Shown piece after piece: positions 5,367-31,550 of a stretch of DNA of 34,780 nucleotides. This DNA comes from a virus. The position numbers and the translations under genes are program-made. The notes beneath the pieces were generated by a model. It made no database searches and was not told where the DNA came from. It worked only from the letters and a program-made list of their open reading frames with translations. Numbering within the stretch: position 1 is the first letter of the stretch; each line of letters opens with the position of its first letter. Location: the IMG/VR virus record IMGVR_UViG_3300050821_016370, positions 1 to 34,780 of that record, one strand, 5' to 3'.

Positions 5367-6059
5367 ATGGCTTGGACAAGAAAAAGTAGAAAAGCTGCAT
5401 CGAGACGAACAACAAAACAGAACAAGCGTCAGTGGTCCGACCAGAAGTTCAAAAAGAAGATGTGCAAGATTCGCAAAAAGCAAGCTACACGACCGGGTGC
5501 ATCAGAGGCTTACTCCGAGCGCATGACTATTGTTTGGAAAAATTCGAAGTACCGCGCCAGACAGACACGTTCTAGGAGTAGGTCGGTTGCTTATCAAAAC
5601 CGTGGCGAGAAAATTTCTAAAACGCTTTCCGGGCGCGTGGGTTGGTCGCGGGGTCTCACAAAAGAAACAGACATTCGAATGCAGAGTATTTCCGACGGGT
5701 TGCGTGGTCGCGTTCCGAACTATAAAAAGTACGGAACGTACTACGAAGGGAAGCACGGAAAGATTTGGATGCGGTCGCATTGGGAAGTTGCCTTTGCAGA
5801 GTGGTGTGACAAGAAAGGGTTCGACTGGTTGTACGAACCTATTCATTTCCGGGTAGGAAAAGGTCCGTGGGCTGGTGAGACCTACACTCCAGACTTTTTC
5901 TTGCCACAGCAGGACATGTGGGTTGAAGTAAAAGGACGGTTGAACGAGAGCAACGAGCAGAAGCTATTCTCTTTTCTGAAACAGCATAGTCACGTGCCGT
6001 GGATTATGTTGAAGAGGAGAGACTTGCAAATGCTTGGTGTTCTAGACAAGGCAGCCTAG
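5367..6059 (+). CDS. Free-standing homing endonuclease, PD-(D/E)XK type (copy 1)
   Basis: The product has 230 residues. The basic N-terminal ~115 residues contain NUMOD3-like DNA-binding segments (RGEKISKTLSGR; GWSRGLTKETD; ISDGLRGR). The C-terminal nuclease core reads MRSHWE (Glu140), WLYEPIHF, TYTPDFFLP (Asp176) and WVEVKG (Glu187, Lys189), the PD-(D/E)XK active-site pattern. It should cut a specific site in phage relatives lacking the gene and so spread by repair. It lies between the major capsid and connector genes, which are normally adjacent. The start ATG 5367 has the SD GAGGTG 8 nt upstream, locked in a hairpin. Its stop lies one base from the next start. Two paralogues lie at 11044 and 12972. 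Confidence 0.8.
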   Translation: MAWTRKSRKAASRRTTKQNKRQWSDQKFKKKMCKIRKKQATRPGASEAYSERMTIVWKNSKYRARQTRSRSRSVAYQNRGEKISKTLSGRVGWSRGLTKETDIRMQSISDGLRGRVPNYKKYGTYYEGKHGKIWMRSHWEVAFAEWCDKKGFDWLYEPIHFRVGKGPWAGETYTPDFFLPQQDMWVEVKGRLNESNEQKLFSFLKQHSHVPWIMLKRRDLQMLGVLDKAA

Positions 6060-11043: not shown

Positions 11044-11850
11044 ATGCCGGTTAAAGGCGGTACGCACACTACAAGTGTTCGTTTGCTGCTTTCAAAGCAG
11101 AAGTTAGGTAGTAAAAATCCTACGAAGCGTTTAGATGTTCGGCAAACGTTAAGTAGCGCAGCAAAAGACCGATGGAATAACACAAGTAAGAAGAAACGAT
11201 TAGCTGAGGGTCAGCGCTTAGTCTCAGCGGCAAAAAAGTTTTATGCTACTAGAGAGGGCAAGAAACAAAAGCTACAACAAAGTAAAAAGCTTAGAGGCGA
11301 GAACAATCCGGCGAAACGTTTGGAGGTTCGTGAGAAAATTAGTAGAGGAAGGCGGCGGGCTTGGCGTAACAAGGAGGTAAGGAAACGTACTATCGCCGCG
11401 ATGCAAAAGAGTTGGGACGAAAACTACGATGAGCGTGTAAAAGTAAATCGTAGCCCAAAAACAAGGGCAAAGATTTCCAAGACCATGAAAGGGCGTGACC
11501 CGGTAGGTCGCCCAAGAGGACCGAGAACAGTTTGGTACCGTGGAAACTGTGGTCGAATCGCCATGCGTTCTGAACCAGAGGTTGTGTACGCCAAGATTTT
11601 GGACAAGAAAGGAATCAAGTGGTTGTACGAACCAAACACTTTCTGCGTGGTAGTGGACGGCGTACTGAGAACGTGGACACCGGATTTTTATCTTTCACAA
11701 GAGCGGAGGTTCGTTGAGATAAAAGGATGGCTGCAGCCAGACCAAAAGAAAAAGATTTTGAAGGTGATTGAGCATTATAACGCCACTGATTTTGAATTGA
11801 AGGTTGTCAAAGACGTTCGGTATTTGAAACAAGAGTTAGTAGCAGCGTAG
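11044..11850 (+). CDS. Free-standing homing endonuclease, PD-(D/E)XK type (copy 2)
   Basis: The product has 268 residues. A very basic N-terminal half contains repeated NUMOD3-like elements (GSKNPTKRLDVRQTLS; GENNPAKRLEVREKIS; SPKTRAKISKTMKGRD), which should contact the DNA target along the helix. The C-terminal core matches copy 1: MRSEPE (Glu179), WLYEPNTF, TWTPDFYLS (Asp214) and FVEIKG (Glu225, Lys227). It is inserted between the major tail protein and the tail chaperone gene and has its own promoter inside a hairpin. The SD AGAGGT stands 8 nt before ATG. A terminator follows at 11880, so this gene forms its own expression unit inside the tail operon. Confidence 0.8.
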   Translation: MPVKGGTHTTSVRLLLSKQKLGSKNPTKRLDVRQTLSSAAKDRWNNTSKKKRLAEGQRLVSAAKKFYATREGKKQKLQQSKKLRGENNPAKRLEVREKISRGRRRAWRNKEVRKRTIAAMQKSWDENYDERVKVNRSPKTRAKISKTMKGRDPVGRPRGPRTVWYRGNCGRIAMRSEPEVVYAKILDKKGIKWLYEPNTFCVVVDGVLRTWTPDFYLSQERRFVEIKGWLQPDQKKKILKVIEHYNATDFELKVVKDVRYLKQELVAA

Positions 11851-25560: not shown

Positions 25561-27060
25561 GTGGCGGAAATGGTGAAAGTAGTTCTAGGGAATAGAACTG
25601 CCAAGCTAGTACGTCCGTACCCGTACGAAGTTTTTTCCGAGCATTTGAAGTTCAGAGTCGATGGCGCCGACTACATGCCCAAAGTGAAGTCGGGTGAGTG
25701 GGACGGTTACATCAAGATGTTGAAATTTGACTCTATGGGTGCTGGATTGTTTCTGGCCATGCGTGAGAAGTTGGCAAAAGCTGCAGAGTGCCAATTTGTC
25801 GTGCAAGACATCCGCCGTCAGCCAGAAATGAAACATTCGGGTGTCGTGTCCGACCGGACGTACCAGACCGAGTGTGTCGAGAAAATGGTCCAAGCCAAGA
25901 CTGGTGGACTCATTCTCAACGCTACAGGTACGGGAAAAACGTACATAGCGGGAATGTATTTCAGCCGTCTGGTCAAAACCGGAGTGTTCCTCGTTGACGA
26001 ACTAACGCTTTTGAAGCAAGCACAGATTGAGTTGTCAAGAGTGATGGGTGAAGATGTCGGGCAGGTTGGTAAAGGAGTCTTCGACCCTAAGCGAATAACC
26101 GTAGCGACTGTCCAAACGATGCATCTGCATAAAAAAGACCCGCGGTTTCTCCCGTGGGCCAGAAATCTGGAATCTATCATCATAGACGAGGTTCATCTGG
26201 CCATGAACCGTCGTAACTTTGAAACGGTGTCGTCCATTCGCCCGCCAGTCGTATTTGGCCTAACGGCCACACTTGAGTTGAGAAAAGCTCGTGTCGCGTT
26301 GCAATCCTATAATTTGTGCGGCCCGGTACTTTTTGATTACCCGCTTGAGCGGGGAGTTCAGGAAGGGTACCTGTCTCCGGGAATGGCGGTGTTTGTCGAC
26401 TTTGAAAACGACTTTGAAAAGCAGGGAGGTCGCTGGCGGTTTTTTAACAAAGGAGCGTCAGCGAAAGAGTACACAACCGCCATTGCCGAAAATCAGCAGC
26501 GCAACGCCTTGATTTGTAGCTTGATTCGAGAAGCCGTTAGGAGAGAGAAGTTCGTTATCGTATTGGTCGAGCGAATCAAGCACATTCAGCTGCTACACGA
26601 CGCGTTGATGGACGTTCCGCACCGCGTCGTGTGCGGCTTGAAAAAGGTCGAAGACCGACTAAACTCCCGCAAGTTGTTTGAAGAGGGAAAGATTAAGCTG
26701 ATAATTGCCAATCGTGTTTTCAAAAAAGGGATAGACATAAAGAAAGTCAACGTCATTCTGGACGCAGCGGCCATGCGAAACAAGAACGATGCAGTCCAAA
26801 AATATGGCCGGGGAATCAGAATGTGCGAAGGCAAAGCCGGTCTAATTTACATCGACATTTACGACAAGACTCCTGCCGGAGCCAAGCAGCGCCACCGATT
26901 CGAAACGTCTGCCGAAAGCAGGAGAGCGGCTCTGAAGAGCCGGGGTATCGTCAGTGGACGAGCCAACGCCGGTATGGACCCACAGAGAATCTTTGACCGG
27001 GCCGAGCTTGAGCTGAAGAAGCTAATTGATGCCCTGCCCAAGAAGGAGAACGCCGCATGA
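25561..27060 (+). CDS. Superfamily 2 DNA helicase, UvsW-like
   Basis: This 499-residue protein has the SF2 motifs in order: Walker A NATGTGKT near residues 119-126, DEVH near 209, TAT near 235 (GLTATLEL), and motif VI YGRGIR near 414, ahead of the C-terminal RecA-like domain end. The N-terminal ~90 residues (FRVDGADYMPKVKSGEWDGY) match the small N-terminal domain of T4 UvsW. UvsW unwinds branched DNA and R-loops and helps shift replication from origin- to recombination-dependent modes. The start is GTG 25561 behind AAAAGGAAG. It overlaps the following small gene by ATGA, as a translationally coupled pair. Confidence 0.85.
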   Translation: MAEMVKVVLGNRTAKLVRPYPYEVFSEHLKFRVDGADYMPKVKSGEWDGYIKMLKFDSMGAGLFLAMREKLAKAAECQFVVQDIRRQPEMKHSGVVSDRTYQTECVEKMVQAKTGGLILNATGTGKTYIAGMYFSRLVKTGVFLVDELTLLKQAQIELSRVMGEDVGQVGKGVFDPKRITVATVQTMHLHKKDPRFLPWARNLESIIIDEVHLAMNRRNFETVSSIRPPVVFGLTATLELRKARVALQSYNLCGPVLFDYPLERGVQEGYLSPGMAVFVDFENDFEKQGGRWRFFNKGASAKEYTTAIAENQQRNALICSLIREAVRREKFVIVLVERIKHIQLLHDALMDVPHRVVCGLKKVEDRLNSRKLFEEGKIKLIIANRVFKKGIDIKKVNVILDAAAMRNKNDAVQKYGRGIRMCEGKAGLIYIDIYDKTPAGAKQRHRFETSAESRRAALKSRGIVSGRANAGMDPQRIFDRAELELKKLIDALPKKENAA

Positions 27061-27270: not shown

Positions 27271-27795
27271 ATGCCCAATGACAGTGAAGAAAGAATATTA
27301 AGGCAGCGGGTCTTCGAGGTGCAGGGGCTAGTCGATAAAGCCCTGCAGAAGCACTTCGGCTGTCGTCTGTGGAAGCTAAAAAAGCCTGTTGACCAGTTGC
27401 GCCTTGTGGTGTTCCAGTTGTGGGCCGAGAAATACCATACTTCTGTAGATGAGGTCGTCGAGATAGTGGTAACGTATTTCAGACGACTGATGTCCAAGAA
27501 GTTGCGTCATGCGCCGATTTTCGGCGCAACGATAGCCACAGTGACGGGCCAGCACGCCGAGAAAATCCTGCAAGACACTTTGCTCAAGAGGAACTCAGAC
27601 CGGGAACGAGACTGGTTGCAAAGCGAGCGAGATCGCCAGCTGCGACTGCTGGTTGCCAAGCCCGTCGACCAGCTACACGCCTCAGCAGAAAATTCTTTCC
27701 TGAAAAATTACAGCAAGACTGTAAAACAGGGACAGGTCCAGTCGAAATCAAAAGAGCTTCTGACCCGGAGACGGTTCAGGGGAACGCCGTGGTAA
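27271..27795 (+). CDS. Hypothetical helical basic protein next to the repeat array
   Basis: The product has 174 residues; AGAAGGA lies rather far (13 nt) before ATG 27271. It is predicted to be nearly all helix, basic in total and rich in Arg/Lys at the end (KSKELLTRRRFRGTPW). It contains no motif I recognise. It is the gene directly next to the array of boxes starting 18 nt after its stop, and a small basic helical protein would suit DNA binding; that it binds the array is only a guess from adjacency. Confidence 0.55.
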   Translation: MPNDSEERILRQRVFEVQGLVDKALQKHFGCRLWKLKKPVDQLRLVVFQLWAEKYHTSVDEVVEIVVTYFRRLMSKKLRHAPIFGATIATVTGQHAEKILQDTLLKRNSDRERDWLQSERDRQLRLLVAKPVDQLHASAENSFLKNYSKTVKQGQVQSKSKELLTRRRFRGTPW

Positions 27796-27812
27796 AGTTT
27801 TCCAAGTCGAAA

Positions 27813-28810
27813 GTGAGTGCCGTAGCAGATGAGAGACCCGAGTTGCGAGAGTTGTGCCGGCAAGATTGTGCGATTCGACAAAGTAGTGAGTACCGCAACA
27901 GACGAAAGATTCGTGCCTTGGGTGTCGTACCGTACTCAATGAAAGGTTCGTGGCTGCGGAGTGTACCGTGATTCTTGAAAGATTTGGCTAGTTAGCGCGT
28001 ACCGTGGAAATGGAAAGATTCGCCCTAGAAAGTGAGTGCCGTGACAGCTGAGAAATTCATTACTTGGGTGTCGTACCGTAATAAATGAAAGGTTCGAACA
28101 ATTTGTGGGTACCGGAGTAGGAGGAAAGATTCGTTGAAGACAAGTGTACCGAAAGCGAGGAAAGATTCGGCGCCAAAGAGAGTACCGAGGTTGCTGAAAG
28201 ATTCAGCACCGGGGAGTGTACCAAGTCTAGTGAAAGATTCGAATTGAACGCGCGTACCGTGGCAGATGAAAGATTTGTATGCAATGTGGGTACCGAGAAG
28301 TGTGAAAGAACCGTCGGCCGTGAGTGTATCGAGTTGTCGGAGTGATTCGGTAGTGGGGAGTTGTTCCGCAAAATGGAGAAAGATTCGTACCCACAGAGTG
28401 TTCCGACACCAGGCGAAAGATTCATGCAGATGGGGAGTATCGTCACAGGCGAAAGATTCGACACCCCTGAGAGTTCCACATGCGGCGAAAGATTCGCTAC
28501 TGAAGTGAGTACCGGATGTAGTGAAAGATTTGCTACCTACGATAGTACCGAGAGTCAGGAAAGATTTGTGAAATGAGAGTTGTACCGACGGGGTTGGAAA
28601 GAGTCGCAACGAGCAGTGAGTGCCACAGTTCCAGAACGAACCGCCGGTCTGGAGAGTATCGATCCACCGTAGTGAGTCGTCGAAGTAGGTGGGTATCGTC
28701 AATCAAGAATGAATCGTTGCATCTGTGGGTTCCGGAAAGGTTGGAATGATTCGTGAGAGTACGCGTTGTGTCGTGGGAATACGAAAGAATCGTAATTGGT
28801 AAGAGTGCCG
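27813..28810 (+). repeat. Array of two alternating 10-bp boxes, one box every 18-19 bp
   Basis: The whole gap between the genes ending at 27795 and starting at 28823 is filled by about 54 boxes that alternate between A (consensus GAAAGATTCG) and B (consensus GWGWGTACCG, W = A/T). Examples of A: 27904-27913, 28013-28022, 28124-28133, 28160-28169, 28232-28241, 28451-28460, 28487-28496. Examples of B: 27886-27895, 27959-27968, 28105-28114, 28178-28187, 28505-28514. Ends of successive boxes are 18 nt apart, sometimes 19, with one irregular step near 28760; the pair period averages about 36.6 bp. The 8-9 nt between boxes are not conserved. The last B box (28801-28810) touches the SD of the next gene. 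No gene, terminator or promoter is evident. It may be an origin, a partition site or another multi-site protein target. Confidence 0.9.
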
Positions 28811-28822
28811 AGGAATACGAAA

Positions 28823-28984
28823 ATGGCTATTCTGAGAAAGCAGATTCAAGAAGCAACGCAAGCAGTAGAGACGCTTGCTACCAGTCAGGTCGGTTCACCC
28901 AGCCAAAAGAAAGAAGCTTTGAGTGAATTGCAAGACCTGATTGAGAACTACATGGAAGAGCTTGCCAAGCAAGCAGGAGACTGA
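28823..28984 (+). CDS. Small helical protein after the array
   Basis: The product has 53 residues from ATG 28823, chosen because GAGGA (28810-28814) lies 8 nt upstream; a TTG further up would read into the array. It is almost entirely charged helix (MAILRKQIQEATQAVETL, KKEALSELQDLIENYMEEL), probably a coiled coil. No family is recognised. It is the first gene of the replication operon. Confidence 0.6.
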   Translation: MAILRKQIQEATQAVETLATSQVGSPSQKKEALSELQDLIENYMEELAKQAGD

Positions 28985-29263: not shown

Positions 29264-30613
29264 GTGGCAGGAGAATATTTTGAGGACCCAAATTTTCAAG
29301 ACGAGTTGGTCAGGTTCCTTGTACACGACCGGAACTTTTTGCGCGATTACTCGGCGATGCTTGACCCAGACGACTTTCTGCCGAAAGATAAAATTGAGAA
29401 AAAAGAACGCTACTACGTAGCCAAGACCGCGTTAGAGTTCTGGCGGTTGTACAGAGAGCCAGTACAAAAGCTACTGCGGTCCGAAATGCTGCACATGGCC
29501 GAGGTTGAAAAGCTTGGAGTAGACCAGCTGGGTCGCCTGAACCTTTACGTGGGCCGGATGCTCAACAGTAGCGCGCTCAAGGCCGGTACTGTACTGGGTC
29601 AGAAAATCCTACAGTACAAAAAAGAGCGAGCCAAGGCTGCTGCCATTTCCCAGATGTTCGAGTTGTCGTCGAAAGGATTACTGACCGATGAAGCCTGGAT
29701 AAAGATGTGCCAAGACGGCCTGTCTCTGTACAAGTCCAAGTTCAGGATGACCGATTACTGGCAAGAACTAGACGCGCGTATCGCGCGTAGAGCAATTCAG
29801 AACCAGCGGCAGAGATTCCCATATTTGCTGATAGAGCCGTTCGACCAGATGGTTCATGCCATAGGTAGGGGCCACATAGGGCTGGCCATGGCCCCTTGGA
29901 AACGGGGTAAGAGTCTTTTTCTACAGTGGGTCGCTTTTGCCTACGTCATACAAGGATTGCGGGTAGCGTACTGGACTCTGGAAGACCCTATGGATGACGT
30001 AGAGGACCGGTTCGACGCGTGCGTCACTTGTCTTCCGGTCAAAGAGTTACACGAGAGTGAAGAAAAAGTCAGGCGGCGTTTCGCTTGGGTCAGAAAGTCC
30101 ATCCGGTCGAAACTGAAAATCTACGACGGAACTGACGGCAAAGTTCCCATTCGAAAAATCGAAGACGTTCACGAGCGAGAAGCCAACGCCGGGTTCCATT
30201 CTGACGTAACGATAGTCGATTACGACGACGAGGTCAAACCGCCCGACAGTAAAAAAGAAAAACACGAGCAGCAAGCCGACATCTATTCTGAGTACAGAGC
30301 GTATCTGGGCCGGACTCAGCAGTTCGGTTGGATAGCTAGCCAGACGGGGCGTGACACCCAGAACCTAAAAATAATCGCCGGGTCCAAAATTGCCGACGCC
30401 ATCGGTAAGGTACGGAAAGCGCACATGGTGCTGGGTTTGGGCGTGGGGGACTGGGGAGAAGAATCTATCTACATGTACGTTGACGCCCATAGGTCGGATG
30501 CATCACGGCGGGGTTGTAACATCATGACCAACAAGAACCAGATGGCCTTTTACGATAGAGATGCGACTATGGCCAAGTTGCTGAAAATGGACACGTCTCA
30601 GGAGGATGTATGA
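29264..30613 (+). CDS. Replicative DNA helicase, DnaB/gp41-like
   Basis: This 449-residue protein starts at GTG 29264 behind GAGGGGAG. The N-terminal helical domain (residues ~1-150) resembles the DnaB/T4 gp41 N domain. The RecA-like domain shows Walker A APWKRGKS near 209-216 (with Lys215 and Ser216), a following helix (LFLQWVAFAYVIQGLRVAYW) ending in the usual 'V-x-Y-x-T-L-E' strand, and Walker B VTIVDYDDE near 315. SQTGRD near 365 matches the DnaB H3 'Q' motif. It should unwind DNA at the fork as a hexamer with the primase at 31550. It is coupled by ATGA to the next gene. Confidence 0.8.
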   Translation: MAGEYFEDPNFQDELVRFLVHDRNFLRDYSAMLDPDDFLPKDKIEKKERYYVAKTALEFWRLYREPVQKLLRSEMLHMAEVEKLGVDQLGRLNLYVGRMLNSSALKAGTVLGQKILQYKKERAKAAAISQMFELSSKGLLTDEAWIKMCQDGLSLYKSKFRMTDYWQELDARIARRAIQNQRQRFPYLLIEPFDQMVHAIGRGHIGLAMAPWKRGKSLFLQWVAFAYVIQGLRVAYWTLEDPMDDVEDRFDACVTCLPVKELHESEEKVRRRFAWVRKSIRSKLKIYDGTDGKVPIRKIEDVHEREANAGFHSDVTIVDYDDEVKPPDSKKEKHEQQADIYSEYRAYLGRTQQFGWIASQTGRDTQNLKIIAGSKIADAIGKVRKAHMVLGLGVGDWGEESIYMYVDAHRSDASRRGCNIMTNKNQMAFYDRDATMAKLLKMDTSQEDV

Positions 30614-31383: not shown

Positions 31384-31550
31384 TGGATATTCCGGCAGCT
31401 TACGACACCGCTGAGAAGGTTTGTAAAGAGTGGCTTGTAACGACGGATGGCTCTGTAGATGCGGGTATGCGGAGAATAGGTACTGAAAGATTCGAGAAGT
31501 GGGTTCTGGAAGTAGAAGCCGTGTTGGAAAAGAACAATCCGAGAGAGTGA
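31383..31550 (+). CDS. 55-residue helical protein
   Basis: ATG 31383 shares a base with the previous stop (TAATG); AGCTTGAGGAG lies upstream in the end of the preceding gene. The sequence (AAYDTAEKVCKEWL, TERFEKWVLEVEAVLEK) is helical and acidic. Its stop overlaps the primase ATG by one base. No family recognised. It contains one exact A-box (31485-31494), here read as TERFE. Confidence 0.55.
   Translation: MDIPAAYDTAEKVCKEWLVTTDGSVDAGMRRIGTERFEKWVLEVEAVLEKNNPRE

What the first reader, a model, noticed from the sequence alone, without database searches (positions are those of the whole stretch)
27813..28810. A 1-kb array of two alternating boxes with a fixed 18-19 bp rhythm, filling the gap between two replication-region genes
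Seen directly: about 27 A boxes (GAAAGATTCG and variants) alternate strictly with about 27 B boxes (GWGWGTACCG). The distance between ends of neighbouring boxes is 18 or 19 nt nearly throughout, while the 8-9 nt between boxes are unrelated. Both boxes share G at position 1, G at 5 and CG at 9-10, so they may derive from one 18-bp unit. Conserved short boxes with divergent spacers mean selection on the boxes, not recent duplication. 18.3 bp is about 1.75 helical turns, so successive sites rotate by about a quarter turn, as would suit a protein filament or wrapped complex. Position between the UvsW-like and DnaB-like helicases suggests an origin with an extreme number of iterons, or a partition/segregation site. 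I know of no described phage element with this two-box layout.
Basis: partly seen in the sequence, partly recalled or inferred. Interest (0 to 1): 0.92.

Follow-up and report, generated by a model that had tools for sequence, protein, structure and literature searches.

The report
Phage TIGR guide-RNA array without its partner
The 1-kb array is a string of about 28 tiny two-part guide-RNA units of the recently described TIGR-Tas system, a CRISPR-like RNA-guided DNA-binding system of phages, here sitting among the phage's replication genes and apparently far from the gene for the protein that uses the guides.

Summary
Window 27813-28810 holds 55 ten-base boxes, 27 A and 28 B, strictly alternating at 18-19 bp, with spacers of 8-9 nt that carry essentially no conserved sequence. 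The origin/iteron/partition reading is not supported. A sister phage keeps the array between the same genes. A third phage of the same capsid family has a 64-box array elsewhere, beside a gene for an IS110-C-terminal-like protein. A search with that protein returned 21 viral contigs (two of them the source phages). All carry a ~36-nt-period two-box array beside or near the gene. The protein's closest solved relatives by sequence and fold are TasR and TasH. The array therefore matches TIGR arrays (Faure et al. [quoted passage not shown] It probably makes about 28 dual-spacer guide RNAs for a nuclease-less TasA. No tas gene lies in this 34.8-kb contig; in the sister phage the syntenic array is inferred to lie about 35 kb or more from tas, with four more arrays scattered between genes. 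No targets found in held related genomes. Known kind, unusual dispersed layout.

The parts
27799..28822 (+). [quoted passage not shown] fills the gap between two genes
   Evidence: comparison with PMC12045711
27813..28810 (+). 55 full boxes: 27 A boxes (edge repeat, GAAAGATTCG) alternating with 28 B boxes (loop repeat, GnGnGTACCG), pitch 18-19; 8-9-nt spacers between them without consensus
27799..27804 (+). putative 5'-truncated edge repeat (TTTCCA, ending 8 nt before the first loop repeat); weak
   Evidence: read by eye
28819..28822 (+). putative 3'-truncated edge repeat (GAAA), directly before the ATG at 28823
   Evidence: read by eye
27271..27795 (+). upstream gene, 174 aa, unknown function; conserved also in relatives that lack the array, so not the array's dedicated partner
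28823..28984 (+). small downstream gene (53 aa from ATG); similar small ORF at the same place in sister phage G001 (by eye)
29264..30613 (+). DnaB-like replicative helicase
25561..27060 (+). UvsW-like helicase

Best explanation
The interval is a TIGR (tandem interspaced guide RNA) array of a phage TIGR-Tas system. Shown here: the array anatomy, its kinship with arrays that sit beside Tas-like genes in other viral contigs, and the kinship of those proteins with TasR and TasH. Inferred: the array is transcribed with the surrounding one-direction gene block. A box = edge repeat and B box = loop repeat. The transcript is cut inside edge repeats into about 28 tigRNAs of about 36 nt, each with two 8-9-nt spacers between box C/D-like motifs. 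Each tigRNA is held by a dimer of a Nop-domain Tas protein and guides it to DNA, spacer A pairing with one strand and spacer B with the other. The Tas-like protein of the sister phage has no nuclease domain (TasA type), so it would bind and bend targets, not cut them. Its gene is expected about 5 kb beyond the left end of this contig. The array at the helicases would act in trans.
For: Two alternating 10-nt repeats with 8-9-nt spacers at 36-37 nt per unit match the published TIGR architecture: alternating 8-12-nt repeats, 9-nt spacers with exceptions (16 nt in total for SpTIGR), 36-nt units (PMC12045711). Spacer positions carry about 0 bits in three phages. The Tas-like profile search returned 21 contigs, two of them the source phages G011 and G003; every one has a two-box array of ~36-nt period beside or near the gene. 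A scan of the capsid family's contigs found arrays only in the window, G001, G003 and G011. phrog_4285 was found only in the array-bearing G003 and G011, not in G009, G012, G013, G014 or G015. The 18-member Tas-like profile matches TasR 9mty (E 4.7e-27) and TasH (5.7e-14), ahead of IS621 (1.1e-6). The AlphaFold2 model (pLDDT 83.7) has TasR and TasH as its top 11 PDB matches. The last base of the two repeats covaries over 16 loci (r = 0.83), and locus L113 begins both repeats with GT where others mostly have GA, as the paper reports for box C and D.
Against: No tas gene is in the window contig. No terminator above chance follows the array, although published arrays typically end in one. The 5' truncated edge is weak. 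No target was found: spacer pairs match held related genomes no better than mispaired controls. That G003 and G001 are two parts of one phage is an inference. Transcription and processing are untested. The covariation test is not corrected for kinship of the loci.
Confidence: 0.94

Rival explanations
1. Replication origin with many iterons, or a centromere-like site, bound as DNA by a phage initiator or partition protein.
For: Location between UvsW-like and DnaB-like helicase genes; conserved short boxes at fixed pitch.
Against: Relatives with the same flanking genes have ordinary ORFs and no array there. G011 has its array next to portal and tas. The sister phage appears to have five arrays. 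Array presence follows the Tas-like gene, not helicases. Box changes covary between A and B.
Confidence: 0.03
2. Remains of a TIGR system: arrays left behind or copied to new places that no longer give working guides because tas is far away or lost in this phage.
For: No tas in the contig; some boxes are degenerate; smaller arrays in G003 are degenerate.
Against: Boxes are still near consensus over 55 copies while spacers are randomised, which needs continuing selection. The array is kept at this place in two phages about 56-92% identical in shared proteins. A tas gene is present in G003, inferred to be part of the sister phage's genome.
Confidence: 0.1
3. Arms of an IS110-like mobile element with a bridge RNA.
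For: Pfam names the partner's domain Transposase_20 (IS110/IS116) in 16 of 18 members; phrog_4285 is annotated 'transposase'.
Against: No N-terminal DEDD/RuvC-like domain was matched; sequence and fold are closer to TasR and TasH than to IS621; the ncRNA is a long dual-repeat array, not a single bridge RNA.
Confidence: 0.01

Closest known systems
TIGR-Tas, dual-repeat type with solo-Nop TasA (Faure et al., Science 2025, PMC12045711)
   Same: Two alternating ~10-nt repeats, 8-9-nt spacers, 36-nt unit, repeats whose end motifs covary, phage genome, Nop/IS110-C-terminal-like protein without nuclease domain beside arrays in relatives.
   Different: This array is not next to a tas gene in its contig; in the sister phage the syntenic array is inferred to be >=35 kb from tas, with four more arrays between other genes. 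About 28 units here, while 5-15 was most often reported. End motifs here are GA...CG rather than the UG...CCA of TasR arrays; no terminator seen.
TasH of Salicola phage CGphi29 (SpTIGR)
   Same: Phage-borne; 16 nt of spacer per guide (8+8), as here; TasH structures are among the top structural matches of the Tas model.
   Different: TasH carries an HNH nuclease; the Tas-like proteins here match no nuclease domain in Pfam.
IS110 transposases with bridge RNA (IS621)
   Same: Shared C-terminal RNA-binding (Nop-like) domain with the GIGP motif; dual guides.
   Different: No DEDD/RuvC-like domain matched, no insertion-sequence structure seen, array of many short guides.
CRISPR arrays
   Same: Conserved repeats with variable spacers that turn over quickly.
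   Different: Two different 10-nt repeats and 8-9-nt spacers; no Cas or adaptation genes were identified among the window genes tested.

Membership tests
TIGR array (dual-repeat) | two distinct alternating repeats of 8-12 nt | tested here: met
   27 A and 28 B boxes of 10 nt, strictly alternating
TIGR array (dual-repeat) | variable spacers of about 9 nt (8-12) | tested here: met
   spacers 8-9 nt (one 10), about 0 bits at nearly all positions
TIGR array (dual-repeat) | 36-nt unit | tested here: met
   A-to-A distance mostly 36-37; lag 36 dominates autocorrelation
TIGR array (dual-repeat) | end motifs (box C/D) covary between the two repeats across loci | tested here: met
   last base r = 0.83 over 16 loci; GT start in both repeats of L113; not corrected for kinship
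TIGR array (dual-repeat) | array starts and ends with truncated edge repeats (typical) | tested here: inconclusive
   GAAA at 28819-28822 fits; TTTCCA at 27799-27804 is weak (by eye)
TIGR array (dual-repeat) | rho-independent terminator after the array (typical, not defining) | tested here: not met
   no terminator-like site above chance follows the array
TIGR-Tas system | tas gene in the same genome | tested here: inconclusive
   absent from the 34.8-kb contig, a fragment; in sister contig G003 tas lies about 5 kb before the ortholog of the window's first gene
TIGR-Tas system | Nop-domain Tas protein next to the arrays (tested in relatives) | tested here: met
   21 of 21 contigs; profile hit to TasR 4.7e-27; Foldseek top hits TasR and TasH
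TIGR-Tas system | processing to 36-nt tigRNA bound by Tas; dual-strand DNA targeting | not testable with these tools
   needs RNA-seq and binding assays; target search in held related genomes negative
Iteron origin / partition site | conserved position with replication or partition genes in relatives | tested here: not met
   array absent from the same gap in four relatives; elsewhere in G011
IS110 transposon | DEDD/RuvC-like domain plus C-terminal domain | tested here: not met
   only Transposase_20 matched

The most novel reading that the evidence does not exclude
A phage carries several TIGR guide arrays detached from tas and dispersed between unrelated genes, one locked between its replication genes. 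They serve one nuclease-less Tas protein in trans, so that guide supply is tied to the expression of each gene block. Such distal arrays would have been missed by mining that looked only within 5 kb of tas.
Probability: 0.5. Interest if true: 0.72.

Novelty: new member of a known kind. Interest (0 to 1): 0.58.

Why it matters
The natural role and targets of TIGR-Tas are unknown, above all for nuclease-less TasA. This phage family has near-complete ~120-kb contigs with and without the system, arrays of up to about 50 guides (about 62 in one related contig), arrays away from tas, and close relatives whose spacers have turned over. That makes comparative and experimental tests of function possible and shows that searches limited to the neighbourhood of tas will miss guides.

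Tried and rejected
Exact A-B pattern in viral contigs gave a chance hit inside a tail gene. The degenerate triple A pattern in 11.3 million genome contigs gave only ordinary tandem repeats with conserved spacers. The minus-strand 225-aa ORF across the array gave no family hit, and the array's box spacing breaks its frame. The 18-nt periodicity in G012 and G013 is a collagen-like coding repeat in G012; G013 was assigned the same by its matching signal. Structure prediction of the 27271 protein gave a poor model (pLDDT 70.8) and was not pursued. No Rfam match above gathering score. Searches for targets of the spacer pairs in own and related genomes showed no excess over mispaired controls. Literature phrase searches for a two-box phage element or a phage IS110-like protein found nothing; only the TIGR searches were productive.

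Full report
Observation. The finding is real and well described. A chain model with two alternating box types recovers 55 boxes from 27813 to 28810, 27 A and 28 B, all on the + strand, strictly alternating, pitch 18 (39 times), 19 (14) or 20 (1). The chain scores far above mononucleotide shuffles and above other stretches of the window. Column-wise information reaches 1.9 bits in the boxes and is about zero at nearly all spacer positions.

Relatives. The window is a 34,780-base linear virus record. It has no DNA match among 50,697 phage records at blastn sensitivity, and only remote DnaB similarity there. Its portal finds a sister contig G001 (59.6 kb; shared proteins about 56-92% identical) that has the array in the same gap: A box GAAAGATTYG, B box drifted to GTTTGTAWCG, spacers unrelated; the loop-to-edge spacing is 18 in 21 of 22 cases and the other 18-21. 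A second contig from the same metagenome, G003 (57.8 kb), carries four more arrays of 26, 7, 10 and 6 boxes between genes. G003 ends with the ortholog of the window's first gene, while G001 begins with the region of the window's portal, and their gene contents complement each other, so they are probably two parts of one ~117-kb phage (inference).

Position is not conserved. The major capsid protein finds five further relatives that also encode DnaB and the 27271-type gene, three of them 117-125 kb contigs (G011, G012, G014), plus fragments. In G011, G012, G014 and G015 the sequence between those two genes has no array and reads as ordinary ORFs. G011 has a 64-box array of its own upstream of the portal, with boxes GARCGAGTCA and GAGAGWACCA. 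That ends the origin reading, which needed the place to matter.

The partner. The gene immediately before the G011 array and the gene immediately before one G003 array are orthologs. They match Pfam Transposase_20 (the IS110 C-terminal domain; in G011) and phrog_4285 (both). phrog_4285 was found in none of G009, G012, G013, G014 or G015. An alignment of the two proteins returned 21 viral contigs, two of them the source phages. All 21 have an array or a 34-38-nt periodicity beside or near the gene, most within 150 bp, with typical repeats GAGCGAGCCA and GAGAGTACCA. The consensus for L118, L120, L121 and L122 is less certain, so these were left out of the covariation test. In a scan of the capsid-family contigs, arrays appeared only in the window, G001, G003 and G011.

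Identity. The 18-member profile matches the solved TasR (9mty, 4.7e-27) and TasH (5.7e-14) before IS621 (1.1e-6); 9MTY is the TasR structure of the TIGR-Tas paper. The AlphaFold2 model (pLDDT 83.7) has TasR and TasH as its eleven best PDB matches, with modest TM-scores (0.45-0.52 on the query) and 14-18% sequence identity. Faure et al. (PMC12045711) describe TIGR arrays as two alternating 8-12-nt repeats with spacers of 9 nt (8+8 in one phage system), processed to 36-nt tigRNAs whose two spacers pair with opposite DNA strands, held by a dimer of a Nop-domain protein; the motifs at the ends of the two repeats covary between systems. All anatomical points hold here. The last base of the two repeats covaries over 16 loci (r = 0.83, not corrected for kinship), and one locus starts both repeats with GT where others mostly have GA. 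I assign A as edge repeat because the array appears to end in a half A box (GAAA, 28819-28822, directly before the ATG at 28823) and to begin with a weak half edge; this is by eye.

How it probably works. Inferred from the known systems: co-transcription with the gene block, cutting inside A boxes, about 28 tigRNAs loaded on a TasA dimer, RNA-guided DNA binding without cleavage, since no nuclease domain was matched. tas is not in this contig. By synteny it should lie about 5 kb to the left. In the sister phage the syntenic array would be at least 35 kb from tas, so it would act in trans. What it acts on is unknown: spacer pairs in the published target geometry (A followed by the reverse complement of B) match held related genomes no better than mispaired ones, so there is no sign of self-targeting or of targeting these sister phages. 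Between close relatives boxes are 72-93% identical and aligned spacers 44-61%; exact sharing of spacers is rare (8 in one pair, 6 when full lengths are compared), so spacers turn over fast.

Verdict. A known kind of system, met without its protein gene and in an unusual dispersed layout. The paper searched for arrays within 5 kb of tas, so distal arrays of this sort would not have been seen by that route. Whether others have since reported them I could not establish; the library held only four papers that mention tigRNAs.

Noticed in passing
L078 1-1240 (G015, IMGVR_UViG_3300024286_000006): A different 1.2-kb noncoding array, with GT at nearly every 5 nt and superperiods of 21, 26 and 31 nt, upstream of a gene similar to one in G014 and G009; no tas-like gene found in this partial contig. 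Found in no other held locus. Unexplained.
   Followed up: partly
window 31485-31494: One isolated exact A box (GAAAGATTCG) just before the primase gene, outside the array; 0.1 expected by chance in the window.
   Followed up: no
window 5367-6059 and 11044-11850: Two proteins with similarity to phage endonuclease families lie among the structural genes.
   Followed up: no
L024 5025-7943 (G003): Terminase large subunit with a weak Intein_splicing match inside.
   Followed up: no
L074 1630-2050 (G014): Noncoding insert next to a gene of the structural block that looks like a group I intron by eye; not tested against Rfam.
   Followed up: no
L022 2412-3361 (G003): A 26-box array with drifted A boxes (GAATGAATCG type) sits directly before a gene with a LuxR-type helix-turn-helix domain.
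   Followed up: partly
L090 12524-18385 (G012): 1953-aa protein with long collagen-like Gly-X-Y repeats, which mimics an 18-nt periodicity.
   Followed up: yes
window 27271-27795: 174-aa protein of unknown function kept between UvsW-like and DnaB-like helicase genes across the capsid family, C-terminus RRRxRGxPW in the two closest.
   Followed up: partly
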